DNA from: Chlorella sorokiniana
Lineage: Eukaryota; Chlorophyta; Trebouxiophyceae; Chlorellales; Chlorellaceae
NCBI GenBank assembly: GCA_025917655.1
Contig: CP084610.1
Span: forward strand, 682,001-746,000
Length of the DNA: 64,000 nt
Direction: 5' to 3'
Below, in pieces: positions 19,214-37,756 of the stretch; positions within the stretch are counted from its first letter, which is position 1; each line of letters starts with the position of its first letter. Under the pieces are notes generated by a model. That model was not told where the DNA came from and ran no database searches. It was given only the letters and a program-made list of their open reading frames with translations. Both the position numbers and the translations under genes were made by a program.

Positions 19214-21718
19214 TCACTTGCGCCGCCTGTTGGTGGCGATGTGCTTGCGCTCGTTGGGGTTGTGCTTCCAGCCCGCAAGCAGCGCTGCCGCGCCCTTGCT
19301 ACCGTGGTGCATGCCCGCAGCCTGCGCTGGGTGCACAGCTCGAGCCACGGTGAGGCTTGCCATGTCCGGGGCCACTCGGAAACGACGATTGCACTGCATA
19401 CCAGCCTGCCCAGCCTGTTGCTTCAGACTCACCAACGTGCACCTGGGTTGCTGCAGGAAAAATGCAAGCACCGCCCATCCTGCGCATCCCGACCCACGCC
19501 CGCCACCCATGCCCTCTTACTGAAGAAAAATAACATAAGGCCACACCAAACCCACCTGGTGCCACGTTTCGTCGCTGTACTCGGGCGCAAACGGGTCCAG
19601 CACCTCCTTGGCCTTGCGGGAGCGCAGGCGGTGCGCCTTGGCCAGCAGCTGGTCCTCGCGCAGGATGAGGTCGTTGTGGCGCCCGCCCTGCGGTGGCCGG
19701 GGGTGTCAGGAGGGCAAGCCGTGATGACGGGGATCGTACACAGGTGCACAGGCCGGTCCGAGGAAAGGAGAGAGTATCACCCTCAGCCCGCCAGTGCCAT
19801 GCGCACCCCCCAGCTCAAAAGAAAAGAAACAACGAAGCAAGCAAGCCAGAGCTGCTTTCCAATCCGGGAAGGCCCTCAACCCTTGTCCCCCGCAGCGCTT
19901 TTCACCTTGGGTTTGGGCAGCGAGAAGCGGGTGCCGCGCAGGATGTGCTTGCGCCGCACGCCATACTGCTCCGCGCCGTCGGGCCCCACCACCAGCTGCA
20001 CCTTGTCCAGGGAGGCGTTGCCGCAGCGGGGGCAGAACAGGCGCCCCATCTCCTTGGTGACCAGGAAGCAGGCGGTGCAGCGCAGCACCCAGCGCGACAG
20101 GCGGGTGATGCGGCGGCCGTCGGGCGTCACCAGGCGCAGGCCCATCTGTCCGGCCCGGGAGGGGGGGAGGGGGCATTGAACTTGTTTGGCAGAGCACAGA
20201 TGGAGGCTGCATCGGAAGCTGAGGCAGCGGCAAAACTACAGGAAAGGCAGATGAAGCCGAGCGGAGAGTGCAGGGCACCAGCTCAGCGCCGTGCCAGAAG
20301 CGCTTCCCTAGGCATGCAGCCGCCGCCCTGCGCACCTGCATGATCACGTTCTGCATCGCAAAGTCTGCGGTGACTATGCACACGCTGCTCTCAAACCGCG
20401 CCTGCTGCTGCTCCTCTGCTGCCGCTGCGGGGCCCTGGCCGCCAGCTGGCGCCGCCGTTGCCGCCGTCGCGTCGTCGTCGCTGGCCAGAGAGCATGCGTC
20501 GTCGCCCTCGCCCTCCTCGCCCTCCTCGCCCTCCTCGCCCTCGCTTTGCTGCTCTGCTGCTGCAGCCGCTGCCGCCGCCTGCCGCGCCTCCCACGCGGCC
20601 TTGCGCGCCGCCTTGCGCCGCTGCCGCCGCTGCGAGTTGCCCGACTTGGCTGCGGTCTCCCACTCGCCATCCTCCTCGTCGCTCTCCTCCTCCTCCTCAC
20701 CGCTGCCCTCATCAGACCCCGCCTGGCTGCCTGCCAGCGCTGCAGCCGCTGCCCGCGCATCCTCCAGGCTCAGCTGCTGCACTTGGGACGCGATGCGGCT
20801 GGCGCCTGCGTCGACATCCTCCGCCGCCTCTCCACGCTGCAGCGCCGCCTCCGCCGCTGCCAGCTCCTCTTCGTTCAGGCGGTCGATCTCCGCCCAGTCG
20901 CCGCCCTCCACGCCCCAGCCCGGCAGCTGCAGGCAGGAGGCAGGCGAGGAGTCGGGGGTGAGAGGTCCCCAGCAGGCGGCGTCCACGACAGGCCAACCAT
21001 CCATGCTAGCCACGTCAAGCCAGCGATGGCGGCTGCACTGTCCAGCCCTGCGCTGCCTCTGCAGCGAGCACCCACCTTCTTGGCGTCGTGCACCTTCTTC
21101 TTCTGCACCCGCGGCAGCTCCGGCAGCTCCCGCAGGTGCCCGCTGCCGTGCGCCGCCGCCTCCAGCCCGTGCGTCAGCGCGATGAGCCGCACGTCGGCGG
21201 AGGACAGCGCATGGATGTCGCCCGTGGCGCGCGCAAACTTGACCACTGCAGGACAGGGCAGGCGATGGGGCAGGCCAGTGAGCAGCTACGGGAAGCGCCT
21301 CTTGTGGCCGGTCCTTCTGTGCCCTGCGGCTGGCACTCGTTCGCTGGATAGGGGCACCTTGCTGTCCTGCTTCGGTGCGGGCGCCCCCAACGCATGCCCA
21401 ACATCCACAAGCACGCAATTCATAGGCCAACGTGCACTGCTGCAGGCACTTGCCTGCCTTGATGGACTCCTCCGAGGGTTCCTGTGTCTCGATCGCAAAC
21501 GGCAGCGCCGCCAGCGCCGCCCGCGACTGCTTGTCCCGCACCTCCCGCAGCACCTCTGGCGTCGTGACGCACTTGTCAACCAGGGCCAGGTTGAGCAGTC
21601 CGTGCTGGGTGATGAGGGCATTGGCGTCCAGCACCGCAACCCGAGTGCTGGCTGCGCAGGTGTCTGCGGCTGGTTCGGCCTTGACCGGCTCAGCCTTGGC
21701 TACAGCCGCCCAGTTCAT
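19214..21718 (-). CDS. NOB1: 20S pre-rRNA endonuclease NOB1
   Basis: PIN-domain nuclease that cleaves at site D to mature the 18S rRNA 3' end in pre-40S particles. The ATG is at 21718. The N-terminus encodes VAVLDANALITQHGLLNLAL (first PIN Asp) and CVTTPEVLREVRDKQSR. Exon 1 ends at 21454 at a GC donor (GCAAGT) and joins in phase to VKFARATGDIHALSSADVRL, carrying the second acidic cluster. A long acidic, Ala-rich insert follows. After SSVCIVTADFAMQNVIMQ come the zinc ribbon (RCTACFLVTKEMGRLFCPRC, GNASLDKV) and EQYGVRRKHILRGTRFSLPK. The last exons encode ILREDQLLAKAHRLRSRKAK, DPFAPEYSDETWH and a basic tail ending NPNERKHIATNRRRK. All hallmark NOB1 elements are present in order. Confidence 0.93.
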
Positions 21719-22118
21719 GCTTTGCTATATGCTCAACTCACGCAAGTCTTAGTTGTTGGGGAAGACATGCATGTGGCTGAGCAAGTGGCGGCGGCCTGAT
21801 GGTGCTGGCTCGGTTCCAATTGATGCAAACTACGGACTGGTGATTACGGGTTGCCTGCATACACGACCCTCCCTCGACATTTCTGCGCGCGCGGTGAAAT
21901 GCTCAAGCACAGCATGGACCTGTACAGCATGCTGATCGCCCGCTGAAGTCGCATTCAAGACACTGCACCGCACCACCAATTCCGTGCTTAGCGATCGAGA
22001 ACCCTCGTGTGTGGCACGGACTTACACCGCACCCCGCGCGGACATTGCCAGTTCTAGTCCACCAATCGCAATCTACGATTGATATATACGCTTGTATTCC
22101 GCTCTAACCCCTTGCGAC
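21719..22118. promoter_or_regulatory. Divergent promoter region NOB1/carotenoid oxygenase A
   Basis: These 400 bases lie between two head-to-head start codons, with noticeably lower GC content than the coding flanks. No defined element was assigned. Confidence 0.4.
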
Positions 22119-25100
22119 ATGACTTCGGGTGGTGCCAGAATCCAGCAGCCGCTCTCTCGCCCTGTCCCGGCCTGGGGAGCGGCTCCTGCCGCCCCACATC
22201 GCTGCGCAATGCCTTCTGCTGGCAGCAGCAGCGGACCCCAGCTGGAGCTCCGCACCTCGCGCTGCCGCCCTGTCGCAGCTGCGGCCGCCGGCTCGGCGAT
22301 CGCAAGCCCTGCAGCCCCTGCAGACGTGGGCACGCATTTTGACAAGTCAGACTGGGACAGCTTCTTGAAGGGCTACAAGTCGCAGTACATGGAGCGGTCG
22401 TACTGGGTTGAGGACAGCATGGTGGAGGGCGCCATTCCCGCAGAGCTGGAGGGCACGCTGCTGCGCAACGGCCCCGGCCTGTTCGAGGTGGGCGGCCAGA
22501 AGATCCCGCAGCCCTTCGACGGCGACGGCATGCTGGCGGTGTTCGCCTTCAAGGGCGGCAGGGCCTTCTTCGCCAACCGCTACGTGCGCACCAAAGGTGA
22601 CTGGGGCGACGCCTGCACAAGCCGCTGGGCTCTTGACAGGCAGGGACTCGTGTCTGATGATGGAGATGGTTTGATGTGGTGGTTCTGGCTGGCAGCTGCC
22701 TGCCCGTCCCTGTGCCCGATGCGCAGCTTTCCCACCTTTCCTGCTGCAGGGTTTGTGGAGGAGCAGCGGGCGCAGCGGCTGCTGTACCGCGGCGCCTTTT
22801 CGGTCGGCAACCCCGCGGGGGCTGGTTCTACAACCCCTTTGACCTGACCGTGAAGGGCGTGGCCAACACCGGCGTGCTGCACTGGGCGGGCAAGCTGCTG
22901 GCGCTGTACGAGGTGCGGCCTTTTTGGGGGCGCGGGAGGGGCACCGCCAGCCTGGGCAGCTGCTGATGCTGCTGCGCAAGCCTGTTCCGGCTCAGGGCAG
23001 CGCAAGCATACAACGGTCCAGAACCAGTCACCAATACAGAAACGCACATGTGCGCACTCGCCTGTGTGCCCTGCAGCGCGACCTGCCCTACCAGCTGTCC
23101 ACCCCCGAGCTGCGCACTCTGGGCCAGACGGTCAGCGTGCCCAGCGACGCACCCTTCTTCGGCGCCCACTACCGCATCGAGCAGGTGGGACCCGCCGCCC
23201 CGCCACGACCAGCCGCCCTCCCTGCCGGGCCCTGCATGCCAACAGCTTGGCAGGACGGCGCAGCGCGCTGTTGGAAACTAGAGTAGCGCCCACAGGCCAC
23301 CTGTTGCCAAGATGCCGCAGGACGCCGCTGGCGGCCGCCGCCTCGTGGCCTTCAACGCGGAGGAGCGCGGCCAAGACAGCCGCATCAACGTCTTTGAATA
23401 CGACGACAGCCTCAACCTGCGGCACCGGTGCGGCGACGCCTGCCAGGAGGCAGCCAAGGGGGCACTGCACCACCCTGCCGTTCGGTGCTGCTGGCAGGCT
23501 GGGCGCCTGCTGCGCCGCTGGAACGGCTCCCTGCTGAGCGGATGCCCGCGCCCCGTCACTGCGCGCAGGACCGAGTTTGAGCTGCCCGGCGCCGCCTTTG
23601 GCTTCTTCCACGACTTTGTGCTCACCCCCAACTACTACGTGTTCTTGGAGAGCCCCAGTGAGTGCCAGCGCTGCACGTTGGGCTGCCACGACTGCTGTTG
23701 AACACCCGCCCGTGATCCTCTGCCAGCGGCAGGCCAGCATGCATGGCGACCTGGCGCATCGCGCTGCGGTGCCTTGCTGCCGCGGCGCCCGCCCGTCACC
23801 CTCGCCTGTCCACCACATTGCCCTATCTGCCACAGTGAGCTTGGACCTGTGGAAGGTGGCCACCAAGTACATGTTTGGGCGGGCATGCATCGCCGAGTGC
23901 ATCGTGTGGGACGCGGGCAAGAAGACGCGGGTGCACCTGGTGCCCCGCCCCGGCAGCGCGGCGGCTCAGAGCGTCAGCGGTGCGCGACGCCGGGCAGGGG
24001 CGCTGCCGCTTGGCCTTTGCTGCGCTGCACAATCTGCCAGGCAGTCCTGGCCGCCAGCGGCAGGTCGCTGAGCTGGCTGCAGCGCCTGCGTTATGTGCCC
24101 CCCTCTTGCTCTCCCCCTCTGTAGACCCGACCCTGCTACGCCGCACCTTTGACGCGCCGCCCTTTTTCTCCTTCCACCACGCCAACGCGTACGAGGCGGG
24201 CGGCAACCTCGTGATCGACACGGTGGGCGGGGCGGGGCGGGTCCGCAGTGATGTGTGCCGCTAGGCGTGAGTGGCCCTTCCTGCCGGCCTACAGCCGAAT
24301 CCGCCAGCCAGCCAGCCAGCCAGTCCATCTCCCAGCCCTCATGGCTCCCTCATGTCCCTCGCCTCTTTGTGCCCCCCCCACCCCCACACGCACAGGTGGC
24401 CAACCACGACGGCGTGGACCTGGGCGCATCCTTTGACAGCGGCCCCGGGTACTACGACGACAACGTGGGGCGCGGCACCCTCACCCGCCTCGTGCTGGAC
24501 CTGGGCTCGGGAGCTGCGCACCTGCACCGCCTCATGCACCGCGCCTGCGAGTTCCCCTCGGTCGCACCTGCAGGCAAGGCTGAGCGGTGTGTGTGTGTGT
24601 GCATGTGTGTGTGTGTGTGTGTGCATGTGTGTGTGTGTGCGTGTGTGTTGGTGGGAGTGGCTTCACCGGCAATGGGGAAGGCGACCGGGATCCAGAAGCA
24701 GGGCAAGCCTTGCCGGTGGCCACGCCCCTGCCATGAGAGTTCAATGAAGGGTTATCACACCTCCCAAACCTGCCACCCCGCTGTTCCGCAGTGACGGGTC
24801 AGCCCCACTCGCATGTGTACTTGGCTGCCAGCCGCTTTGACCGCGCCGACGTCTGGGGAGCGCCGCAGGCGGTGTGCAAGGTGTCGGTGCCGCCGGAGGC
24901 GGGCGTGTCGCGCCATGCGGCGGCGAGGCGGCGGTGCAGGACGTGTACTATCCAGGACGCAGGCAGTACGCGCAGGAGCCCATCTTCGTACCGCGCAGGC
25001 AGCCCAAGGTGAGCGTCGCCGCAGGCTGGTCATCCAAGCGCGTCCCCGCTGCGCCGATGCTGTGGCCTGGTGGGATGGGTCCCGCTCACGCCGGCCTCGC

Positions 25101-25484
25101 CTGTGCCCTTCCCACCTCGCATGCAGGCGGAGGACGATGGCTGGGTGCTGGCGCTGGTGTTTGACGCGGAGGCGGAGCGCACCAAACTGGTCATTCTGGA
25201 CGCACAGCAGCTGGCGGGTGAGCTGGCAGCAAAGGGCAGCATGGGCGCGCCACCCAGTGGCTGCTTCTGCGCCCGGCTGGGCCCCTGCTGCTGCCAGGCA
25301 AGTGACCGTGGCGTGCTCTTGTTCTGGCACTGCAGCGGGGCCGGTGGCGACCATCACGCTGCCCCACATGCTGCCCCTGGGCCTGCACGGCAGCTGGACG
25401 GGCTCCTACCTGGGCCCCGAGCCGGGACGGGCCTGGGAGCCGACCGCGTACGACATCCGCAACGGCGTGCAGATGGAGCCCTGA
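22119..25484 (+). CDS. Carotenoid cleavage oxygenase (RPE65/ACO family), copy A
   Basis: Non-haem iron oxygenase that splits carotenoids or apocarotenoids, a potential retinal-forming enzyme. There are eleven exons: 22119-22596, 22750-22912, 23077-23184, 23321-23427, 23569-23657, 23836-23979, 24125-24222, 24396-24573, 24792-25008, 25127-25217 and 25336-25484. The leader is Ala/Ser/Arg-rich, plastid-transit-like. Core motifs are EGTLLRNGPGLFEVGG and PQPFDGDGML. The four predicted Fe-binding His lie in FFGAHYRIEQ, FGFFHDFVLTP, FSFHHANAYE and LPLGLHGSWTG. Intron 8 has a GC donor (GCAAGG at 24574). The exon sum is two bases short of 608 codons. One base is missing in the G run 22817-22821 (SVGNP then GGWFYNPFDL) and one near 24920. 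About 607 residues are expected. The substrate cannot be read from sequence. Confidence 0.88.
24587..24649. repeat. Imperfect (TG)n microsatellite
   Basis: A TG/GCATG repeat lies in intron 8 of oxygenase copy A. The matching intron of copy B retains only a short remnant (about 36350-36365), so this intron has diverged between the copies. Confidence 0.9.
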
Positions 25485-26112
25485 CCTCAGCTGGCAGCTG
25501 GGGTGCCGCTGCACACACAGAAATGAATCCTGCGCTGGCTTCAGCCGCCCCTGCACACTTGCCCAAATCTTCTTGGCATCTCTTTCCTGCAAGTCAGTTT
25601 CACATTCACACATTCACAATCAATAAGTGTGGTTTCTTTTTGGCCAAATTTACGTTCATCCTTCATCAACCTCCCCAGACCGCCAGAGCGCTGCCGTCGT
25701 ACGCACGAAGCCCATGGACTCTGCAGGCAACCCTTGCAACCTTCACAAACACTTGTTGCAGCAAGTTGGTCGCCATGTGCCCCGCCACCACCGCTTGAAT
25801 GTACCACAGCACGAGGGTTTAGGTGAGCCCGACAGATTAGGTGAGTGCGTTGCAGCGAACGACTCAAAAACGCAGGATGCGTAGGGTTAGGGCGACTCGT
25901 CCGTTTTGTCACAACCCGCTGCATCGGTTGCCGCACGTTCGGCACGGCACGGCACGGCAGCACTTGGTCGGCTTGACTCGGTCCTTGCACGACCATCTCC
26001 AGTTCTGTCTCTTCAGGAGCTTAAATCCTCTGCCCCGTTAGCGCTTCCGCACTGTGTTCCTCGGTCAGCATCCGTTCCAGCCGATAGCAGGGCGAACCAC
26101 CCAGCCGCCATC
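25485..26112. promoter_or_regulatory. Intergenic region upstream of heliorhodopsin
   Basis: These 628 bases hold the 3' UTR of oxygenase A and the presumed promoter of the heliorhodopsin gene. A short CGGCACGGCACGGCACGG-type direct repeat lies at about 25940-25962. No gene was recognised. Confidence 0.4.
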
Positions 26113-27975
26113 ATGGCTCCCCTGACGTTCACCCGCCTGCGCCGTTGGAACTTGGGCGCAGGCCTACTGCAGCTTGTGACGGGCGTGGTCGTCCTGGGCA
26201 TCACGCCCTATGGCGACCAGAGCAAGCTGCCCTGGTACACCTTCTTCATTGCTAGCTGGTCCCGGGATGACGACCCAGACGGCTTTTACAGGTGGGGTTG
26301 TTGCAGCTGGGGTAGCGGCCGTCGTGTCTACGGCCTTCAGTGCCGGCATCAGTGCAGGTCACCTGCATCCCCACTTCCCGTCCATGTCCTGGGCACCCAA
26401 GCCAACACGCCTAACCTGCCGTTTGATGTCCACGATGCAGGCCTAGCCCCAAGCAAGTGGCCAATTTTCCAATAGGCGTCTGGAGCGGCGTCTTCCTGCT
26501 GCTGTCTGCGGCGGATCACCTTGTGGTGGCTCTTCCACGTGTCAACGCCATCTACAATCGCTGTCTGTGCCAGAATCGCAACCCCTTCCGATGGGCAGAG
26601 TATTCCGGTGGGTGGAGTGGGGCGTTAAGGAGAGTTGGGGCTGCGTAGGAGGGATGTCAGGCCTACCCCTGGGTCTGGCCGATTCACATCGCGGCGTGAA
26701 GTAGCTGCCCCCGCTGGCAGCGACAAACGCACTGCTTGTACTTCTCAAGCCTGCCCAGCCTCGCATCCATGGGCCTCCTTCCCTATATCCTCATGCCTGC
26801 AGTGAGTGCTAGCCTGATGAGCGTGATGATTGCCCAACTGTGCGGCGTGACCGATATCCACCTGCTCTTCACGCTGGCCGCCCTCATGGGCTCCACCATG
26901 CTCTTCGGCCACCTCATGGAAACCGCCAACGGCACCCGCATCCCCACCTTTGCCTATGGGGAAGACCACGCGTCCCCGCCTGTCCCGGTCCCAGCCAAGC
27001 ACCCTGTCGCTGCGCCGCTGCCTGGCGCATTTATCACTGACGACGCCGGCAGCAGCTCCCATGGTAGCGAAGCCACGCTAACTCGCATTGACTGGACCCC
27101 GTTTGTGATGGGCTGCTGGCCCTTTTTGGCTGTGGAGCTGGTGACTGCCTGCTTCTTTTTCCAGGCAGTTTCCAACGACGACCCGCCCGACTTTGTTTGG
27201 TGAGTGGCAGCGCAAGTTGTGAGAGCACTATCAGGCCATCGGGTGTGCCAAATGTCTCAGTTCTGTCAAGGGGGAATACTTTCGTGATGGCCCCTTGAGG
27301 TTGTCGTAAAGCGTTGCTTGAATATGCTGCTTGTTGGCAGCCTCTGTTCCGTTTGCCAGGTGGCCTGCCCATGACCCCACCGCCCCCTTTCCCCTGTGCC
27401 CTCCCCGCACTTTCAGGAGCCTCTTCTTCATCCTCTCACTGCTCTACATCCTGTTTGCTGTGAACCAGATTCTGCAGTTCCGTCAGGTGGGAGGCTTGGA
27501 TAGCAGCAAGGGGTTTGTTGGTCAGCTGGGGCTCGGGGGGGCGGGGCGGGGCAGGCTCAGATGAGGGAGAGGCTTTGAGTATGAGGGGGTGGAACGCGGC
27601 AGCTGATGAGCCCCTTTGTGTGGCCGTGTTTCCATAAGAAACGACAACACCCGGGATTTGGAACCCTGCACTGTCCAGCAGATGTGCTGTGTTCCGTCCT
27701 CATGCAGGTGCGTGGCTGGCGAGGCTTTGCCCAGGCTGAGTGGTGGTACATCGTCCTGTCCCTCACTAGCAAGCAATTGCTAGCGTGGATCACTTACGGT
27801 GTGTACAATGCAAGGTTGGGGCTTGGGGTGTGGGTTTTCTGGCTGCCTTGGACCACTTCAATGACGAGGGGCCTGACCCCTGTGCCGAGGCCTGGTGCAA
27901 CACACTCTGTTACAGCCTTCACATGTCGCCTAGCCTCCGTGTGTCCCCTCCTGCAGGCGGCAGCAGGCGCTTTGA
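26113..27975 (+). CDS. Heliorhodopsin (retinal-binding seven-helix photoreceptor)
   Basis: Six exons (26113-26291, 26441-26607, 26803-27199, 27417-27486, 27708-27814, 27957-27975) total 939 bases and read without a break as 312 residues. TM1 begins with the heliorhodopsin signature LRRWNLGAGLLQLVTGVVVL. TM2 is WSGVFLLLSAADHLVVALPR, and TM3 follows FRWAEYSVSASLMSVMIAQL, with E113 at the Schiff-base counterion position. Then come HLLFTLAALMGSTMLFGHLM, a roughly 65-residue Pro/Ala-rich loop, FVMGCWPFLAVELVTACFFF, SLFFILSLLYILFAVNQILQ, and TM7 AEWWYIVLSLTSKQLLAWIT with the retinal-binding Lys at K293. The protein ends just after TM7 (NARRQQAL). Type 1 rhodopsin motifs are absent. Heliorhodopsins have an inverted topology and a long photocycle; their cellular role is unsettled. 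Family placement is by motif recognition, not a database search. Confidence 0.87.
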
Positions 27976-28064
27976 GGATGAAGGCATTTAATGGCCCAAC
28001 TGCCGTGCCCATCCAACAGGCAGAGGCCTCAGAGCACCTGCAGTACATTGTTTGGAAGTGCCGC

Positions 28065-28080
28065 TTCACCGGAACGCTGC
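28065..28080. repeat. Target-site duplication, left copy
   Basis: TTCACCGGAACGCTGC occurs here and exactly again at 28755-28770, bracketing the LINE fragment. Confidence 0.8.
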
Positions 28081-28754
28081 TAAGTGTGTGTTAGTCTGCC
28101 TATGGTCAATCACTGAACCGTCGCAGACTGTTGTGCATGAGGTGAGAGTGAAGGGTGAGGGTGAGGCAAGGGAACAGAAGCAAGGGGGCAGGGAGTATCG
28201 AGCGAAAGCATGAGGTGGACCCCGGGACCGGCAGCCAAGCAAGAGATGGAGCAAAGAGACAGGAGGAGGGGAGGGGAGGGGAGGGCGGGCACAGGTCAGA
28301 GTTAGGGGTTATCAGAACGATGCAAGGCACGGCAGAAGCTGGAAAGCTGGACAGGATCGGGAAGGTGAAGAAGGAGTATAGGGAGGCGGTATGTGCAGGG
28401 GTGAACAGCTGTGGGTATTGAGCACGCAAGTCAGCATTGTGAGGGCAGTGAAAGACCGCGTGGGCTGCGTCCTGGACATGTTCCTCGCCCGCCGCTGCAC
28501 AGTGCGGGCACACCCGCTGCGCCCGCTGCTGCTGCTGCCATCGCCCCGTCTCCTCCGCCAGCCAGTGGGCGCCCGTTCGTAGCTGCCCCAGCGCCCTCCA
28601 GCGCCCGCGGTGCTCGAGGGTGCGCAGATACCGCGGCATGTCCCGAGCCCCATCGGCGCCAGTCGCCGCCACATACTGGACGGCTCGGGTGCCCTGCGCA
28701 GCAGCCAGCTGCGCCCGCACCGAGGCCGCCCCAGCTTCCACCAGGCCAGGCACA
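28081..28754 (-). mobile_element. 5'-truncated LINE (non-LTR retrotransposon) 3' fragment
   Basis: This 674-base insertion lies between perfect 16-bp direct repeats. On the minus strand it encodes the C-terminal end of a LINE-type ORF2: ALGQLRTGAHWLAEETGRW followed by a Cys/His cluster (RVCPHCAAAGEEHVQDAAH, then VFHCPHNADLR), the layout seen after the reverse transcriptase domain of many non-LTR elements. The reverse transcriptase and endonuclease are absent, as expected for 5' truncation during target-primed reverse transcription. The element's 3' end faces the heliorhodopsin gene and there is no long poly(A) tail. It inserted 105 bases after the heliorhodopsin stop, probably in its 3' UTR or just beyond. 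The perfect duplication suggests a fairly young insertion. Confidence 0.75.
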
Positions 28755-28770
28755 TTCACCGGAACGCTGC
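28755..28770. repeat. Target-site duplication, right copy
   Basis: This is an identical 16-base partner of 28065-28080. Removing the element and one copy would restore a continuous A/T-richer intergenic sequence. Confidence 0.8.
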
Positions 28771-28840
28771 AACTGGACACATACCTTGAGCACCTTCCCG
28801 TTGCATTTTGTCACGTGCAACAACCGTTTACGCGGCATAA

Positions 28841-28972
28841 GAGCTGGGAGGGATGGGCGAGCTGGGAGAGGGGGCGCGAGGGGAGCGCTTGGAGAGCTGG
28901 GAGGGGTGGGAGAGCTGGGAGGCGGGGGGACGGGCGGGGGAGGTGCGGAGAGCTGGGAGGGGTGCAAGATGG
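28841..28972. repeat. GAGCTGGGAGGGG minisatellite
   Basis: Imperfect tandem units of about 12-20 bases built on GAGCTGGGAG lie in the region between the LINE fragment and the bZIP gene. No coding signal was found from 28973 to 29467. Confidence 0.75.
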
Positions 28973-29467
28973 GAGGCTTCCTCTTAAGAATTTCTCAATT
29001 GTCGGATTCAATCAATTTTCTTGCACTCGAAAGCATTGCGGCAGTCTTATTCCAGTCATGAGGTCGTGACCTCCCCCATTGGCTGCAAGTTGGTCAATGT
29101 GCGGCGCATGTACCTGCAGCAACCACAGTGGAATAATCAGCCATCATCATGTTATATAATTTGTGCCTTTCTCATTTCAACTGTATGCTAGCTTGCAAAT
29201 AAGATGGCGAAATGTGTCCTTCATCAGGAGGATGCGAGACATGTGCTGGAGAACGGGCTAGTGACGGTGACGTGATCCGGTGCCAGGCCAGCTATGCTTC
29301 TGAAGCTGAGGCCACTTAGCTCGCCTTTTAGCGCTAACGACAACAGCAATCGCCGGCAGCCCGCCCACAGCAGTCCTCTCAACCCAAGGTGGCCCCTCTC
29401 TCCCTGCAACCCTCTACTTTGTTCTGCGCATCGTTAGCACGCCTTCAAACTCTTTGAAAATCCTTTC

Positions 29468-32400
29468 ATGTCTCTGGATGACATCCCGCCGCTGAATAGC
29501 GCGGACCTTGAGGTGCTGCTCGATTCTGCGCCCTTAGACGATGGCCTGCTGCCCTTGGAGCTCCTCGACCCGCATCCTGCGCCCTGGCTGGAGCCTATCT
29601 CTGCAGGCAAGCTGCGGTGGGGATTGGGCCTGCGGTCTCCTGCAGGTGTTGGCCCACGCCTTCATCGGGCGCACAGCTTGAGTGCACCCTGCATTTGCCT
29701 GCAGGTAGCGACTTCCCTCTGCCCGGGGCATCTTTGACCGACTTTGATGGGACAAGCGCCCCAGCGTGTGAGTTGCACGCCTGTATTGCGTTGGTATAGT
29801 ATTAATCTTTAACTGGGGCCCATTTTGCCGCCTGTCCTGACAGCGTCCTGACTTCAAGTGCTGTCTTGCCCCGCTTGACCGCTGCTCTCCCTCTCCCTGC
29901 ATGTGCAGTTTCATCAGACACGTTTTGGGATGCCTTCTTGGCTTCAGAGCTTGTGCCAGCGCCTGGCGTGGCAACAGACTCCCGATCCTGCTCCCAATCA
30001 TCACCATGTCCACCAGCGGAGGAGCCTGCGGCGCCCAAGACAGCACCAGCGGCAGCGTTGCCGGCGGCGGCGCCAACAGCAGCGGCCGCGCACCTGCAGG
30101 TGGGGACGCGCGGCGCAAGGGCCACAAGGGCAGAGGTGGCGGCGGCAGGAAGCAATTGAGCGAGGAGCAGAAGGAGCGCATCCGGGCCAAGAATCGGAGG
30201 TGGGTGGACAACCCGCGCTTGTTGTGTCGGCGTTGCCTGCCAAAGCTGTCCGTTGCGTGTGGAAGGCCGTCACTGGTCGTCCATCCGCGTTGTACGCTGG
30301 ATGCGGATCCGCAGGGCCCAGAACCGGTACCGAGAGAAGCAGAAGGTCAAGATGGCGGCGGTGGAGAACGAGTACGTGGACACCGCCGCCGAGCTGGACC
30401 GCGCACGCCTGGAGAACCTGCGCCTGCGTGAGCAGCAAACCACGATGCAGCAGGTGCTGTCGGTGCGCGGTCGGCCATGGCCATCCTTCAGACCGGCAAG
30501 GTGAGCCGAGCGTGGTGGGCTGCTGGTATCATTCTGGGTGTTGTGGCAACAGACGGGTGTTGTGGCAACGTGGGCAGGAAGGGAAGAGGGGAGGGGAGGG
30601 GGGCGCGGCCGAGGGTGCAGGGGCCCAGGGGGACGCGCGCACTAGGGCGGTGAAACTCGGATGCTGCCACATGTTTGAAGCCAGCTGCCAGCTGGGGAAC
30701 ATCACGACTAGCCAGCTAGCAGCGCTGCCCAACCGCAGCCTCGCTCTTGCCTCTTGTGCAGGTGGCCGATGATGCGGAGGTGCCAGGCTTGCCCTGCGGC
30801 TGCCTCTCCCATGACAAGTGCAGCTGCCCCAAGGCAGTCACCCCTGCGGGCAAGGTGGCCAAGGTGCTCCACAGACTTGGGCCCCACGCGCTGCTGCCGC
30901 CCAGCAGTGCGCAGCGGCCTGGCGAGCAGGCGGCCTGCCCGCTCACAGGTCTCTCACTCAGCCAGATCGGGAGTTGAAGGAGACGCCGCCGGATGTGCTG
31001 CAGCAGAGCTGGAAGGGCATCGTGCAGCGGCTCGAGTGAGTCCTGCCCCACAGTTTGGCCCCCTCCCCGCGCGCCTGCACGCCTGACGCCTGCTCTGCTT
31101 TTGAGTTTCTAACCTTTGCAGCCCCACGTCCGCGCATGCGCATGCACTCTTCCCAACGAGCACATTGCAGACACTCGCTCTCCCTCTCTGTCACATCCTC
31201 GATCCGCAGGGTCATCCTGCAGCAGCTGAGTGCGGCGCAGGGCGGTGCAGATCCCAACCTGTCGCACCGCGTGGAGCAGCTGGAGGCGGCGTTGCACGAC
31301 ACGCTGCTGGAGGGGGTGAGGCTCTCTGTCGCGATGCTACTTGGCTGCGGCGCTGCCGTCCCAGATGGGAGCCTGGCGGCACGCACCTCCCTCCTCTCCT
31401 GACCAGATGGCCCCCAAGGCTGGCATCTCCCCGCCCTTGTGCCTCGCTCCCACCTGGCATGCCTCCTGCCCAACTGCAGCAATTCTTTTTCTTCGAGCAT
31501 GCAGTGCACAAGCCGGCCAACGTACAGAAACTGTGAGCGTGGCTGCCTGCCCGGCTGCCGCTTCGGTGCTCCTTGTCCTCATGGCTGGCATGCACCGCCT
31601 GCCACCCCCACACGCCCCCTCCCCCACCATCCCGGCAGATTTGCGGCTGTGCTGGACGACGGCCTCTCCCAGATCAGCATTGAGGACGTACGGCACTGGA
31701 AGCAGGTGGCGGTAAGTGCCCCCTCTCTGCTCCATGCTGCCACCCGCTTTAATATCCTCTTCTGAGGTCTGCCGCATGGCTTGGCTCACGCCGGGCGCCC
31801 ATGTCCCCCAAACCCTGCCACCCTCTCCATGCAGAGCGCGCTGCAGCTGACGTCAGAGCAGGTGGGGCAGCTGGCGGCGGCCCGCTCCCGCTTCCTGGCC
31901 TCCATCGACGAGGTGTGCGCCGAGCGGCGTGCGCTGCTGGACCGCCTGGCAACGATACAGGTGCCCTCTACGCTCAAGGTGCTGCAGCACGTCACCGTGT
32001 CTTGGCTGGAGGTAGGTGGTGGAGGGCATATTGGGGGGGGGTAGGTGGGAGAGTCGCGTGCCTCGGTGTTGTGTGACCTGTCCACAACATTCTGCAGTCC
32101 CTTGCACGGCGAGGGAGGATCATTGGATTCCCGTCGTGCGGCAGCTCACAAGCGTGGCTAAAATCTTTGCACCGCCTCCCAACCCGCCTTCCCGCTTGCC
32201 CAGCTGCACGAGGCGACGGCAGGCCTATCGGCCAACATGTCGCACGAGCACTGCGCCTGCATGGCCTTTGTGCGCGATGCCTTTGCCTACGTGCTCACCC
32301 CGCAGCAGGCACGCTTGCGTTGTTGCACCTGCTTTGCTCTGCGCTGTGGGTGGGGGCGCAGCAGAGTGGGGCGGGGGCCGGAATGCTTTGAAGGTGCTGA

Positions 32401-32659
32401 TAGAGTGTGCTGTGCTCCTCTCGCTCTTGTGGGGCCTTGCTTCTGGAACTGCCGTTGACCTCCCCCCACCTCCAAACCCCAACCCCCACCCGGCTCCTTG
32501 CGCCCTCTCCACCCACAATCCCTCCCCTGTGCGTGGCTGGCGCAGAAGGCGGTGGCGGCAGTTCGCTCCTTCCCCTTCTTCCCGACATGTACATCGTTTC
32601 AACACTGGCGCTGCAGGCAGCTGGTGCGCTGCCTAGTGCCAGCCCGCAGCCGTTGCTGA
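29468..32659 (+). CDS. bZIP transcription factor, green-algal type
   Basis: Nuclear DNA-binding regulator. Exon 1 (29468-29606) starts MSLDDIPPLNSADLEVLLDS, an acidic activation-like segment, and uses a GC donor (GCAAGC) to join GSDFPLPGASLTDFDGTSAP. The basic region is split by an intron: EEQKERIRAKNRR joins in phase to AQNRYREKQKVKMAAVENEY, followed by a zipper-like DTAAELDRARLENLRLREQQ. Downstream exons carry the C-terminal helical domain common in algal bZIPs: PPDVLQQSWKGIVQRLE, LSHRVEQLEAALHDTLLEG, FAAVLDDGLSQISIEDVRHW, LQLTSEQVGQLAAARSRFLA, HCACMAFVRDAFAYVLTPQQ and KAVAAVRSFPFFP. A second GC donor follows at 32309. Between the N-terminal exons and the basic region the reading frame is not fully resolved. 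The C-terminus is uncertain: the straightforward frame stops at 32657-32659. Confidence 0.75.
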
Positions 32660-33861
32660 AGTTGCCCTGCCCTGACTGCTGGCGCCGCATCAGAGCCAGC
32701 GGCGAGTCTGCTGCCGCAGCTGCATTGTTCGCGCCCAAGAGATGCCTCTTGGATTGGCAGCCAGTCGTTGTTTGTCCCCCTGTCTGCTGCCCATCCCCTT
32801 CCTTCGCGGCCGCGCCTGCCACCGCAGGCCACCCGGCGTCGTGTTCTGGCCAGTAGCGATCGCGCTCAGCAAGCTTTATTTGGCTTGGAAGAGGCTTCAC
32901 CTCACCTTTGCTGGCGTGCGCCACCACTCTGCCTATGCGTGTTTACTATGCAAAGGGCTACGTTGAGCTTTTGAATGGCGCTCCTCTCGTCCCTGCTTTG
33001 TGCCCTGCGCAGCACGTCACTTGTACACTGCCCGCGCAAAAGTGCAGCTCCCCTTCATCGATGATTTGTCCTGAGACCCCGCCCTGCCCGGTCAGCTCAC
33101 TGGGTGTTGTGTTTATGCAGCCCCGCCCTTCCTGGGCTCTCGCTCCCTTGTGCCCGCACAAACTGTCCTTTTCCAGTTAATTGCACCCTGCCCACTTGCG
33201 CGGCTGATTTGTGCCTTACGGGCCTCTCCATGACAGCCCTGACAACCTGCCGCATTTCATTTCACTACGCTTTTGATTTTCCTGGGTAGCTGTGCAACAC
33301 GCGCCTCTTTGGCGCAGAACATGTGCGGCCACACCGTCATGAAGCTGTTGCATTTCACACATAGAACTATCCTTGCACCTCCACCTCTGCCGTCGTTCAG
33401 CATGAAGTTTGCGCTTGCTCTCGGATAGCGTCAATGCAAAGCACACGAGGAAGCTGCTGTGCTCAACGTGGAGCAGTCTTCGAGTAGGCTCGTGAGGCCA
33501 TGAGTGTGCCTGTTTGGGACGCTTCATTCACTGAGGGCGATACATGAGCTGGACACTGGCGATCAGAGGCAGCTATACGCGAGTGGGCCATATGCATAGA
33601 ACTCTTCCGCGCGCGCGATGCGCGACGGACTTCAGGCATTCAATACGAGAGCCAAATGCCCGCTACCTCTTCTAATTGCCAGTGCATCACGACATCCATG
33701 GAACGCTCAAGGAACACGTACCGCCCAGTTTAGGTGATCGACCTCTTGTGGCTTTGACGCTCACTTAAACCTCGGCACAGTCAACTACATCGCATTCTCG
33801 GCCCACCAGTCGCTATCATTACTTGCCTGCAACTTGTGACTTCCTTTAGTTCTCCTCACGA
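32660..33861. other. Intergenic region upstream of oxygenase B
   Basis: This region of about 1.2 kb is less GC-rich, especially 33200-33850. It should hold the bZIP 3' UTR and the promoter of oxygenase B. Short GCGCGCGC tracts lie near 33610. No gene was recognised. Confidence 0.4.
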
Positions 33862-36800
33862 CATGGCACCGACTGTTGCTTTACGCCAGAAGTTTTTCTG
33901 CCGACGTGTATCCGCCTCAAAAGCGACCCCGGAAGCGGCACTCCGCTATCAGGCACCAGTTGTCGGCGGCAGCAGCACATCCGGCCCCCAACTGGAGCAG
34001 CGCACCCCCTAGCGGCTGCCACGTCGCCATCGCTGCCGCATCAAGCATTACCACCCCTGCAGACGCAGATGCTGGTCCGGGCACGCATTTTGACAAGTCA
34101 GACTGGGACAGCTTCTTGAAGGGCTACAAGTCGCAATACATGGAGCGGTCGTATTGGATTGAGGACAGCATGGTGGAGGGCGCCATTCCCGCAGAGCTGG
34201 AGGGCACGCTGCTGCGCAACGGCCCCGGCCTGTTCGAGGTGGGCGGCCAGAAGATCCCGCAGCCCTTTGACGGCGACGGCATGCTGGCGATGTTTGCCTT
34301 CAAGGGCGGCAGGGCCTTCTTCGCCAACCGCTACGTACGCACCAAAGGTGAGTGGGGCAACGCAAAGCGCTGTGCGCTGAGTTAGCTGCCAGGCTCTTGA
34401 TTGGCAGAGACTTGTGTCTGGATGATGATGATGATAATTCGGTGTGGTGGTTCTGGCTGGCAGCTGCCTGCCCGTCCCTGTGCCCGATGCACAGCCCCCA
34501 ACCCCCACCTTCCGTCCTGCAGGGTTCGTGGAGGAGCAGCGGGCGCAAAGCTGCTGTACCGCGGCGCCTTCTCTGTGGGCAACCCCACAGGGGGTGGTTC
34601 TCCAACCCCTTCGACCTCAGCGTGAAGGGCGTGGCCAACACCGGCGTGCTGCACTGGGCGGGCAAGCTGCTTGCGCTGTACGAGGTACGACCTTTTGGGG
34701 GAGGGGGCACCGCCAGCCTGAGCAGCTGCTGATGCTGCTGCGCAAGCTTGTTCCGGCTCAGGGCAGCGCAGGCTTACAACGGTCCCAGCCCTCGAACCAG
34801 AACCAGTCACCAATGCAACAACACACATGTGCGCACTCGCCTTTGTGCCTTGCAGCGCGACCTTCCCTGCCAGCTGTCCACCCCCGAGCTGCGCACTCTG
34901 GGCCAGACGGTCAGCGTGCCCAGCGACGCACCCTTCTTCGGCGCCCACTACCGCATCGAGCAGGTGAGAACTAGCACGCCAGCTGCCCTCCTTGCTGGGA
35001 CTGCATTGGCAGGACGGCAGGACGACGCAGCCCGCTGTTGGGAACAAGAGGCGCCCACAGGCCACCTCTTGCCGCAGGACGCCGTCGGCAGCCGCCGCCT
35101 CGTGGCCTTCAACGCGAAGGAGCGCGGCCAAGACAACCGCATCAACGTCTTTGAATACGACGACAGCCTCAAGCTGCTGCTCAGGTGCGGCGACCACTGC
35201 CGGGAGGTAGCCAGGGAGGCACTGCACCAACCTGGCGTGCGGTGCTGCGCAGCATGCTGGCTGCGCCGCTGGAAATGCTCCCTGCTGAGCGGATGCCCGC
35301 GCCCCACCACCGCATGCAGGACCGAGTTTGAGCTGCCCGGCGCCGCCTTTGGCTTCTTCCACGACTTTGTGCTCACCCCCAACTACTACGTGTTCCTGGA
35401 GAGCCCCAGTGAGTGCCAGCGCTGCACGCTGGGCTGCCACGGCTGCTGTTGAAAAGCCGCCCATGATCCTCTGCCAGCGGCAGGCCAGCATTTATGGCGA
35501 CCTGGCGCATTGCGCTGCCGCGCCCTGCTACCGTGGCGCCCCGCCCCTTCACCCCAGCCTGCCCACCTCTTTGCCCCATCTGCCACAGTGAGCCTGGACC
35601 TGTGGAAGGTGGCCACCAAGTACATGTTTGGGCGGGCATGCATCGCCGAGTGCATCGTGTGGGACGCGGGCAAGAAGACGCGGGTGCACCTGGTGCCCCG
35701 CCCGGGCAGCGCGGCGGCTCAGAGCGTCAGCGGTGCGCGACGCCGGGCAGCGCTGCCGCCGCTCGTTCCCTGCTGCACTTAACAGCCTGCCGAGCAGTCC
35801 TGGCCGCCAACGGCATGTCGCTGATCTGGTTGCAGCGTCATGCGTGCCCCTCCCTTGCTCCCCGCCCCCCGCAGACCCAACCCTGCTACGCCGCACCTTT
35901 GAGGCGCCGCCCTTCTTCTCTTTCCACCACGCCAACGCGTACGAGGCGGGCGGCAAGCTCGTGATCGACACGGTGGGCGGGGCGGGAGGGGCCCGCAGCG
36001 ATGTGTGCCGCTAGGCGTGAGTGGCCCTTCCTGCCGGCCTACAGCCGAATCCGCCAGCCAGCCAGCCAGCCAGTCCATCTCCCAGCCCTCATGGCTCCCT
36101 CATGTCCCTCGCCTCTTTGTGCCCCCCCCCCCCCACACACACGCACAGGTGGCCAACCACGACGGCGTGGACCTGGGCGCATCCTTTGACAGCGGCCCCG
36201 GGTACTACTACGACGACGTGGGGCGCGGCACCCTCACCCGCCTCGTGCTGGACCTGGGCTCGGGAGCTGCGCACCTGCACCGCCTCATGCACCGCGCCTG
36301 CGAGTTCCCCTCGGTCGCACCCGCTGGCAAGGCTGAGCCATGCGAATGCATGTGTGTGTGTGGGTGTGGCTTGATGAGAGTGGCTTCATCGGCAGCAATG
36401 GGAGAGGGGCATGGAGTCCGGAAGCAGTGCATGCCTGTCCAGTGGCGCCCCCTGCTGTGAGAGTTGAACGACGGGTGTGGCCTGCCTTTCTCACGCCTTG
36501 TAAACCTGCCATCCCGCTGTTCCGCAGTGACGGGTCAGCCCCACTCGCATGTGTACTTGGCTGGCAGCCGCTTTGACCGCGCCGACGTCTGGGGAGCGCC
36601 GCAGGCGGTGTGCAGGTGTCGGTGCCGCCGGAGGCGGGCGTGTCGGCACCGTGCGTGCGGCGAGGCGGCACTGCAGGACGTGTACTACCCGGGACGCAGG
36701 CAGTACGCGCAGGAGCCCATCTTCGTACCGCGCAGGCAGCCCAAGGTGAGCGTCGCCGCAGGCTGGTCATCCAAGCGCGTCCCCGCTGCGCCGATGCTGT

Positions 36801-37229
36801 GGCCTGGTGGGATGGGTCCCGCTCACGCCGGCCTCGCCTGTGCCCTTCCCACCTCACATGCAGGCGGAGGACGATGGCTGGGTGCTGGCGCTGGTGTTTG
36901 ACGCGGAGGCGGAGCGCACCAAACTGGTCATTCTGGACGCACAGCGGCTGTCAGGTGGGTTGGCAGGAAGGGCAGCAAGAGCATGGCACCTGGCCAGCTG
37001 GCGGCTGCTTCTGCGCCTGGCTGCCCCCCCCACTCCTGCCGGCCAACTTACCGCGGCGTGCCCTTGTTCTGGCGCTGCAGCGGGGCCTGTGGCGACCATC
37101 ACGCTGCCCCACATGCTGCCCCTGGGCCTGCACGGCAGCTGGACGGGCTCCTACCTGGGCCCCGAGCCGGGACAGGCCTGGGAGCCAACCGCGTACGACA
37201 TCCGCAACGGCGTGCAGATGGAGCCCTGA
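33862..37229 (+). CDS. Carotenoid cleavage oxygenase (RPE65/ACO family), copy B
   Basis: Paralogue of the oxygenase at 22119-25484 with the same exon-intron plan and the same four His motifs (FFGAHYRIEQ, FGFFHDFVLTP, FSFHHANAYE, LPLGLHGSWTG). Exon 1 probably starts at 33862 (MAPTVALRQKFFCRRVSASK), again a plastid-transit-like leader. This frame leaves the conserved frame at a C5 run near 34006-34010 before GTHFDKSDWDSFLKGYKSQY. A second break, in the G run 34590-34594, is at the same site as in copy A. In exon 9 a base missing near 36616 is compensated about 45 bases later. The intron 8 GC donor (36327) is conserved. Coding identity is very high and some introns are nearly identical. The product may be functional if the breaks are sequencing errors. 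Confidence 0.83.
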
Positions 37230-37756
37230 CCTCAGCTGGCAGCTGGAGTGCCGCTGCACACACGGGAATGAATCCTGCGCTGGCTTCGGCCGCCCCTAGT
37301 ACAATTGCCCAAATCTGCTTGGCATTTCCTTCCTGCAAGTCCTTTTCGCAATCAAATAAATGATTTTGGTTTCTTTTGTTTCATGTCATGAATCAACCAC
37401 ATTCATTACGCAGTGCTGCCAGCCAGCTCTGGCGCAAGCGCCTTCACGCTGCCAGCCCTGCGGCAGCGGGGTGGGCTCCTGCCCGTGCCTGAGGTCTCGG
37501 ATGGGGGCGGCACATGGTTTCCTGCTACATTCTTTCCTTTCAATTTGTATTTTATTCTTGCGTGGCAGTTTCTCGCCATCGGTGCACCCTCTGACCCCTG
37601 CTTTGCGGGCGCCCAACCCTGCAACCATAGCGCATTAGATTCAATATTTGAGCTTTAATTTGGCTGTGTAGGCGGCGCCACGAGCCCCTGCACCCTCGGC
37701 CCGTCCGCTTAACTGCCGCTATCTCCAGCACGCTGGCTTGCCTGGGCCGCTGCACC
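37230..37756. other. Intergenic region
   Basis: This holds the 3' UTR of oxygenase B (AATAAATGA-like A/T-rich stretch at about 37355) and the upstream region of the coiled-coil gene. I see no gene here. Confidence 0.35.

What the first reader, a model, noticed from the sequence alone, without database searches (positions are those of the whole stretch)
22119..37229. Heliorhodopsin gene flanked by two carotenoid oxygenases on one strand: a possible retinal-photoreceptor gene cluster
Within 15 kb and all on the plus strand lie carotenoid oxygenase A, heliorhodopsin, a bZIP factor and oxygenase B. Sequence shows four predicted iron-ligand His in each oxygenase and the retinal-binding Lys (K293) in the heliorhodopsin. 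The RPE65/ACO family includes enzymes that produce retinal from (apo)carotenoids, and heliorhodopsins bind retinal. Physical linkage of chromophore maker and chromophore user is known for prokaryotic rhodopsins (for example rhodopsin with blh). I do not know of it being described for a heliorhodopsin in a green plant lineage. That the oxygenases supply this opsin is inference.
Basis: partly seen in the sequence, partly recalled or inferred. Interest (0 to 1): 0.9.

Follow-up and report, generated by a model that had tools for sequence, protein, structure and literature searches.

The report
Duplicate heliorhodopsin beside retinal-type oxygenases
In a green alga, an extra copy of a light-sensing heliorhodopsin gene sits between two near-identical genes of the enzyme family that can make its light-absorbing cofactor, retinal; the arrangement is real, but it looks young and the few relatives that could be checked do not clearly share it.

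Summary
The arrangement is real. On the plus strand lie oxygenase A (22119-25484), a six-exon heliorhodopsin (HeR) with an open frame (26113-27991, 312 aa, PF18761 220 bits, retinal Lys293), a weakly supported bZIP-like gene and oxygenase B (33863-37229). The oxygenases are apocarotenoid-15,15'-oxygenase (ACO) type: A scores 324 bits to Synechocystis ACO against 134 for the next solved family, and both keep the four iron-ligand His. So a chromophore-maker type and its user are neighbours. The cluster reading is only partly supported. A and B are one duplicated gene (86.9% over 3.5 kb, introns included), so the linkage is one event. The HeR is itself a duplicate: its sister on contig C12 has no detected oxygenase within 18 kb, and C12 looks like the ancestral site, since the Chlorella vulgaris orthologue of its neighbour is locus tag ACK3TF_001285, next to HeR ACK3TF_001284. 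In Micractinium conductrix the two genes are on different contigs; in Ulva they share a scaffold prefix. Of 81 prokaryotic and viral HeR loci, none shows an oxygenase. A and B carry frameshifts as assembled; other genes of this assembly do too. Opsin-oxygenase linkage is known (Fusarium carO-carX). Best reading: a lineage-specific juxtaposition; co-regulation possible, unproven.

The parts
22119..25484 (+). Oxygenase A: 11-exon ACO-type carotenoid oxygenase; frame breaks in exons 2 and 9 as assembled
   Evidence: printed boundaries of exons 5, 8 and 10 are one base off and were adjusted by eye
26113..27991 (+). Heliorhodopsin, exons 26113-26291, 26441-26607, 26803-27199, 27417-27486, 27708-27798, 27957-27991; 312 aa, K293
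29468..32310 (+). bZIP-like gene (start read by eye, end approximate); basic-zipper stretch about 30148-30450
   Evidence: sequence; Pfam bZIP_2 only E=0.014, under cut-off
33863..37229 (+). Oxygenase B: copy of A; frame breaks in exons 1, 2 and 9 as assembled
22221..25640 (+). Duplicated block, copy 1
   Evidence: 86.9% over 3496 aligned columns
33968..37377 (+). Duplicated block, copy 2
25817..25847 (+). HeR promoter element (two TTAGGTGA), conserved with the C12 HeR promoter
33728..33737 (+). GTTTAGGTGA, 10-mer shared with the HeR promoter, 133 bp upstream of oxygenase B; chance not excluded

Best explanation
The locus is a young, lineage-specific juxtaposition. An extra heliorhodopsin gene, a duplicate (introns kept) of the HeR on contig C12, lies about 0.63 kb downstream of an ACO-type carotenoid oxygenase; a second copy of that oxygenase starts 5.9 kb beyond the HeR. 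The oxygenases most likely cleave apocarotenals at the 15,15' bond to give retinal. HeR would bind that retinal at K293 and act as a light sensor or transporter; the cell's other retinal proteins (C12 HeR, rhodopsin-histidine kinase) would draw on the same pool. Shown here: gene identities, ACO-type sequence, metal and retinal ligands, gene order, both duplications, the C. vulgaris counterpart of the C12 locus. Inferred: retinal production, chromophore supply, any benefit of adjacency, and that the oxygenase genes are intact.
For: HeR by profile and ligand. ACO as nearest solved family, 324 against 134 bits, and A/B inside a green-algal ACO clade. C9 and C12 HeR are sisters (94/92), C9 branch 0.20 against 0.054; dS 0.473, dN/dS 0.12. 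C12 neighbour's C. vulgaris orthologue ACK3TF_001285 is next in tag number to HeR ACK3TF_001284, on a contig of the same length. No oxygenase in the 40 kb read around the C12 HeR. M. conductrix HeR and ACO on contigs of different length. 0 of 81 HeR loci with an oxygenase.
Against: Adjacency by chance is rare (0.09-0.34%, post hoc). In Ulva HeR and an ACO-like protein share the prefix UM007, which hints at older linkage. Purifying selection on the C9 HeR means it is not a dead copy. Gene order in related algae could not be examined directly. Oxygenase frames are broken as assembled.
Confidence: 0.6

Rival explanations
1. A functional photoreceptor cluster: HeR and the two ACOs (perhaps with the bZIP-like factor) are co-regulated, and adjacency was selected so that retinal supply matches opsin synthesis, as for Fusarium carO and carX.
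For: Right enzyme type next to right opsin. TTAGGTGA occurs 4 times in 169 kb of own sequence, all upstream of HeR C9 (two), HeR C12 and oxygenase B, on their strand; 0 of 100 shuffles of the window reach its 3 matches. Ulva genes share a scaffold prefix.
Against: Motif chosen after the fact; oxygenase A lacks it; the longer GTTTAGGTGA (9 genome hits) is rarer than its reversed control (26), so it is not enriched. Linkage not seen in C. vulgaris or M. conductrix. Two other opsin genes are not near an oxygenase. No expression data.
Confidence: 0.25
2. A and B are decayed genes, and the neighbourhood has no function.
For: Frame breaks in exons 2 and 9 of A and in exons 1, 2 and 9 of B; an exon-2 break is shared by both.
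Against: Other conserved genes read from this assembly are also frameshifted: C12 HeR exon 3 and its amine-oxidase neighbour at two places. Splice sites and ligand residues are intact; dN/dS 0.27 between A and B, though gene conversion could lower both rates.
Confidence: 0.1
3. The oxygenases are intact but make another apocarotenoid, and HeR gets retinal elsewhere, for example from the second ACO-type gene on C1; adjacency is coincidence.
For: A second ACO-type gene at C1:2200717 groups with cyanobacterial ACOs (95/99) and has the ACO structure as best match, 250 bits. ACO-type genes are named in algae for which no HeR is named in the listed hits (Coccomyxa, Trebouxia), and C. vulgaris and C. 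sorokiniana have HeR without a named ACO hit.
Against: A is closer to solved ACO than to any other solved family; no product was tested.
Confidence: 0.2

Closest known systems
Fusarium fujikuroi car cluster (carRA, carB, carX, carO)
   Same: A eukaryotic opsin gene in a cluster with a retinal-forming carotenoid oxygenase gene (PMC5796164, PMC5133782; passages).
   Different: Fungal opsin is type 1 and the oxygenase is CarX, acting on beta-carotene; that cluster is co-regulated, includes carotenoid synthesis genes and recurs in 8 of 11 fungi of one figure. Here: heliorhodopsin plus ACO, no synthesis genes seen, no regulation shown, no recurrence shown.
Bacterial rhodopsin-blh gene pairs
   Same: Retinal-making enzyme often in the genomic neighbourhood of the opsin gene (PMC7701988, passage).
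   Different: Blh is a different enzyme family; PF15461 gave no match in this genome (but no control genome rang).
Bacterial Znf-heliorhodopsins flanked by carotenoid biosynthesis genes
   Same: Heliorhodopsin near carotenoid-related genes (PMC8612252, passage).
   Different: Those neighbours are lycopene cyclase, phytoene desaturase and the like, in bacteria, not a carotenoid cleavage oxygenase.
Synechocystis apocarotenoid-15,15'-oxygenase (ACO)
   Same: Similarity over nearly the whole structure, with the four His and the three second-shell Glu positions aligned (roles recalled).
   Different: The algal proteins have an extra N-terminal region, possibly a transit peptide (inference); activity untested.

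Membership tests
Heliorhodopsin | Match to PF18761 above the curated cut-off | tested here: met
   220.4 bits against 26.7
Heliorhodopsin | Retinal-binding Lys in TM7 (SxxxK) | tested here: met
   K293 aligned; sequence reads SLTSK; SxxxK as HeR motif from PMC9601134 (passage)
Heliorhodopsin | TM3 Glu in RWxEYS | tested here: met
   E113; counterion role recalled
Heliorhodopsin | Inverted membrane topology | not testable with these tools
   needs experiment
Apocarotenoid-15,15'-oxygenase (ACO) | Nearest to ACO among solved RPE65-family members | tested here: met
   324.5 bits against 133.9 for the next molecule; CCD7/CCD8 not represented by name
Apocarotenoid-15,15'-oxygenase (ACO) | Four iron-ligand His | tested here: met
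   A: H245, H300, H382, H573; same motifs in B
Apocarotenoid-15,15'-oxygenase (ACO) | Uninterrupted coding frame | tested here: inconclusive
   frame breaks as assembled, assembly error likely but not proven
Apocarotenoid-15,15'-oxygenase (ACO) | Cleaves apocarotenals to retinal | not testable with these tools
   needs enzyme assay
Opsin/retinal-synthesis gene cluster | Opsin and retinal-forming enzyme type adjacent | tested here: met
   628 bases between A and HeR
Opsin/retinal-synthesis gene cluster | Linkage conserved in related genomes | tested here: not met
   C. vulgaris and M. conductrix indirectly, by locus tag and contig length; Ulva ambiguous; gene order itself not readable here
Opsin/retinal-synthesis gene cluster | Co-regulation of opsin and oxygenase | tested here: inconclusive
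   a shared promoter 10-mer for HeR and B, none of 9 or more bases between HeR C9 and A; no expression data
   bZIP_2 16 bits against 22.3, no family; pieces only, spliced by eye

The most novel reading that the evidence does not exclude
In this lineage a second heliorhodopsin was recruited beside an ACO gene, and the oxygenase then duplicated, building a co-regulated retinal maker-user module: the first chromophore-supply cluster for a heliorhodopsin, and a green-algal parallel to the fungal carX-carO pair.
Probability: 0.25. Interest if true: 0.65.

Novelty: new variant of a known kind. Interest (0 to 1): 0.45.

Why it matters
Heliorhodopsin function is still largely unknown, and how green algae make retinal has little genetic support: a 2016 review says that algal database sequences showed only CCD7 and CCD8 homologues, no ACO homologues (PMC5133782, passage). 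ACO-type proteins are in fact found in many trebouxiophytes, and here one lies beside a heliorhodopsin. That gives a concrete enzyme-opsin pair to assay, with a built-in comparison: the unlinked C12 HeR in the same genome.

Tried and rejected
Rejected: conserved cluster across the relatives checked (C. vulgaris, M. conductrix); Ulva left open. Rejected: two independent oxygenases flanking the HeR (one duplication). Rejected: NCED, CCD1, RPE65/BCO or lignostilbene identity of A; CCD7/CCD8 were not compared directly, and the tree holds no such references. Rejected: that HeRs are generally near carotenoid oxygenases. An ACO profile found no oxygenase in them; the same profile finds the own-genome oxygenases. 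Four Blh queries found none. PF15461 occurs in 19 of the 50 HeR genomes searched, of 80; in the two records titled complete genome with a Blh it lies about 38 and 41 kb from the HeR (from positions).

Led nowhere: the bipartite promoter element GGTGAG..TTAGGTGA has 18 genome hits against 2 for the reversed control. Two are the HeR promoters; of the other 16, I read 10, and all 10 share a longer repeat-like sequence, some with reading like mobile-element proteins. A stricter two-part pattern hit only the C9 HeR promoter. The 10-mer GTTTAGGTGA has 9 hits against 26 for its reversed control. The algal-photoreceptor review PMC12558739 gave no heliorhodopsin passage in the main text. PF15461 in the own genome gave no match, but no control rang. 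Structure prediction was not attempted: oxygenase frames are broken, and the HeR sequence evidence was enough.

Not found in print: the searches (heliorhodopsin with carotenoid, Chlorella, green algae, carotenoid oxygenase, carotenoid cleavage) listed no title on a HeR-oxygenase linkage in an alga; I saw titles and abstract starts, and passages only where cited; one search listed 20 of 25. The library lacks most subscription journals and all preprints.
Full report
What is there. Its closest named relatives are Chlorella and Micractinium: HeR 72% identical to C. vulgaris, oxygenase 71% to Micractinium. The HeR gene model (26113-27991, six exons, five GT-AG introns) has an open frame of 312 aa. 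It matches PF18761 at 3e-65; at E<=1 its PDB matches are 6 distinct sequences, all heliorhodopsins, best 3.1e-24. K293 and E113 fall on the retinal Lys and the TM3 Glu of those structures (the role of the Glu is recalled).

The oxygenases. A and B each read as 11 exons with corresponding GT/GC-AG boundaries (three printed boundaries are one base off and were adjusted by eye). Read through its frame breaks with X, A scores 379 bits to PF03055. Its nearest solved relative is Synechocystis apocarotenoid-15,15'-oxygenase at 324 bits, against 134 for the next molecule and 69 for NCED. Iron ligands H245, H300, H382, H573 and three second-shell Glu (E214, E448, E515) align (roles recalled). In a tree of 29 rows (4 own; 25 of the 120 listed homologues), A and B are sisters (100/100) next to M. 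conductrix (92/91), within a clade with Micractinium sp., Picochlorum and Ulva (99/98). A second own ACO-type gene on C1, only 49% filled, groups with cyanobacterial ACOs (95/99). The tree holds no CCD7, CCD8, NCED or BCO references. Further PF03055 matches lie on C1, C2, C3 and C11; the best solved match of those from C3 and of one C1 gene is another carotenoid cleavage dioxygenase (6vcf), not ACO.

A and B are one gene duplicated: 86.9% identity over 3,496 columns, 22221-25640 against 33968-37377, introns and 3' flank included, some intron stretches identical. Over 509 codons dS is 0.078, dN 0.021 and dN/dS 0.27; 487 of 509 residues agree (codons near frame breaks were left out). The HeR-oxygenase linkage is therefore one event, not two.

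Frame breaks. A is shifted in exons 2 and 9, B in exons 1, 2 and 9. Breaks of the same kind appear in exon 3 of the C12 HeR and at two places in the conserved amine-oxidase gene beside it. With intact splice sites and ligands and dN/dS below 1, I take assembly error as more likely than decay. The exon-2 break shared by A and B lies in a G run; it could be a repeated error or an old shared lesion. This is not settled.

The HeR is a derived copy. A second HeR lies at C12:330810-332797. C9 and C12 are sisters (94/92), 84% identical, with C. vulgaris next (81/86); the C9 branch is 0.20 against 0.054 (14 rows, 12 of them from the 120 listed of 132 homologues; the bootstrap had not settled). dS between them is 0.473 and dN/dS 0.12 over 266 codons, so the C9 copy is under purifying selection. 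Blastn between the window and the 40 kb held around the C12 HeR aligns only the HeR gene (26096-28027). The ACO profile finds nothing in that stretch, which reaches 19.8 kb upstream and 18.2 kb downstream. The gene upstream of the C12 HeR has its C. vulgaris orthologue at ACK3TF_001285 (82% identity over 93%), on a contig of 1,719,491 bp, the same length as that of the C. vulgaris HeR ACK3TF_001284. So C12 is most likely the ancestral HeR locus, and the C9 copy beside the oxygenases is secondary.

Is the linkage conserved? M. conductrix HeR is on a contig of 556,760 bp, its ACO on one of 2,430,495 bp. C. vulgaris and C. sorokiniana have HeRs, but no Chlorella is named among the 120 listed (of 248) ACO homologues (unnamed rows could hide one, and only 8000 candidates were scored). 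Coccomyxa, Trebouxia and others have ACO-type proteins but are not named among the 120 listed (of 132) HeR homologues. Against this, Ulva's HeR (UM007_0021) and an ACO-like protein (UM007_0074) share a scaffold prefix, by their numbers about 53 genes apart; the Ulva ACO is a long branch. Gene order in other algal genomes could not be read here. Of 81 prokaryotic and viral HeR loci, none has an oxygenase by profile, or Blh by four queries, in the DNA held.

Mechanism. The retinal proteins found in this genome are two HeRs and a rhodopsin-histidine kinase on C7 (PF01036 90 bits plus HisKA). No oxygenase was found in the 10 kb read around the latter. A homologue of A forms retinal from apocarotenoids in vitro in Synechocystis (PMC5133782, passage). 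The simplest model is that A/B, and perhaps the C1 gene, supply all three; nothing shows that A/B are dedicated to the C9 HeR. A promoter element is shared by both HeRs, and its core TTAGGTGA also lies 133 bp upstream of oxygenase B: 4 occurrences in 169 kb, all upstream of these genes. The motif was chosen after the fact, A lacks it, and the longer 10-mer is not enriched in the genome (9 against 26 in the reversed control). It is a lead only.

Chance and novelty. Random placement of three opsin genes and six oxygenase loci gives adjacency within 1 kb in 0.09-0.34% of cases, a rough post-hoc figure. Opsin-oxygenase linkage is known: carO-carX in Fusarium, clustered in 8 of 11 fungi of one figure (PMC5796164); blh near bacterial rhodopsins (PMC7701988); carotenoid-synthesis genes beside Znf-HeRs (PMC8612252); and giant viruses that encode rhodopsins and carotenoid oxygenases (PMC7162819). 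All four were read as passages. A HeR beside an ACO in an alga was not seen in the searches listed under Tried and rejected. I rate it a new variant of a known kind, interest 0.45: sound and testable, but apparently young and unproven as a functional unit.

Noticed in passing
P0009 and P0179 (Ulva UM007_0021 and UM007_0074): Ulva heliorhodopsin and an ACO-like protein carry the same scaffold prefix, about 53 gene numbers apart; possibly a trace of older linkage, possibly chance.
   Followed up: no
L018 (G000:C7:2518001-2528000): A rhodopsin-histidine kinase gene, the only PF01036 match listed in this genome; no oxygenase in the 10 kb read.
   Followed up: partly
L017:2308-3588 (-) and window 28106-28810 (-): A reverse-transcriptase-like stretch lies just downstream of the C12 HeR (RVT_1 E=5e-6, under cut-off); a minus-strand open frame at the matching place beside the C9 HeR looks similar in kind by eye but has no Pfam match. 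Mobile elements may have helped the HeR duplication.
   Followed up: partly
G000 contigs C2, C3, C4, C7, C12 (L112-L117): A dispersed repeat carries GGTGAGCCC..GGATTAGGTGAG, resembling the HeR promoter element; whether the promoter element came from it is unknown.
   Followed up: partly
literature, PMC12390592 (passages): 23 of 25 betachloroviruses encode a heliorhodopsin-like protein with Asn in place of the retinal Lys; their relation to the algal HeRs was not tested here.
   Followed up: no
window 19709-21724 (-): A minus-strand gene with a PIN_6 domain, NOB1-like by recall, lies head to head with oxygenase A and may share its promoter region.
   Followed up: no
window, L016, L017: Small indels break the frames of several conserved genes in this assembly; gene models from it should be checked against reads.
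   Followed up: partly
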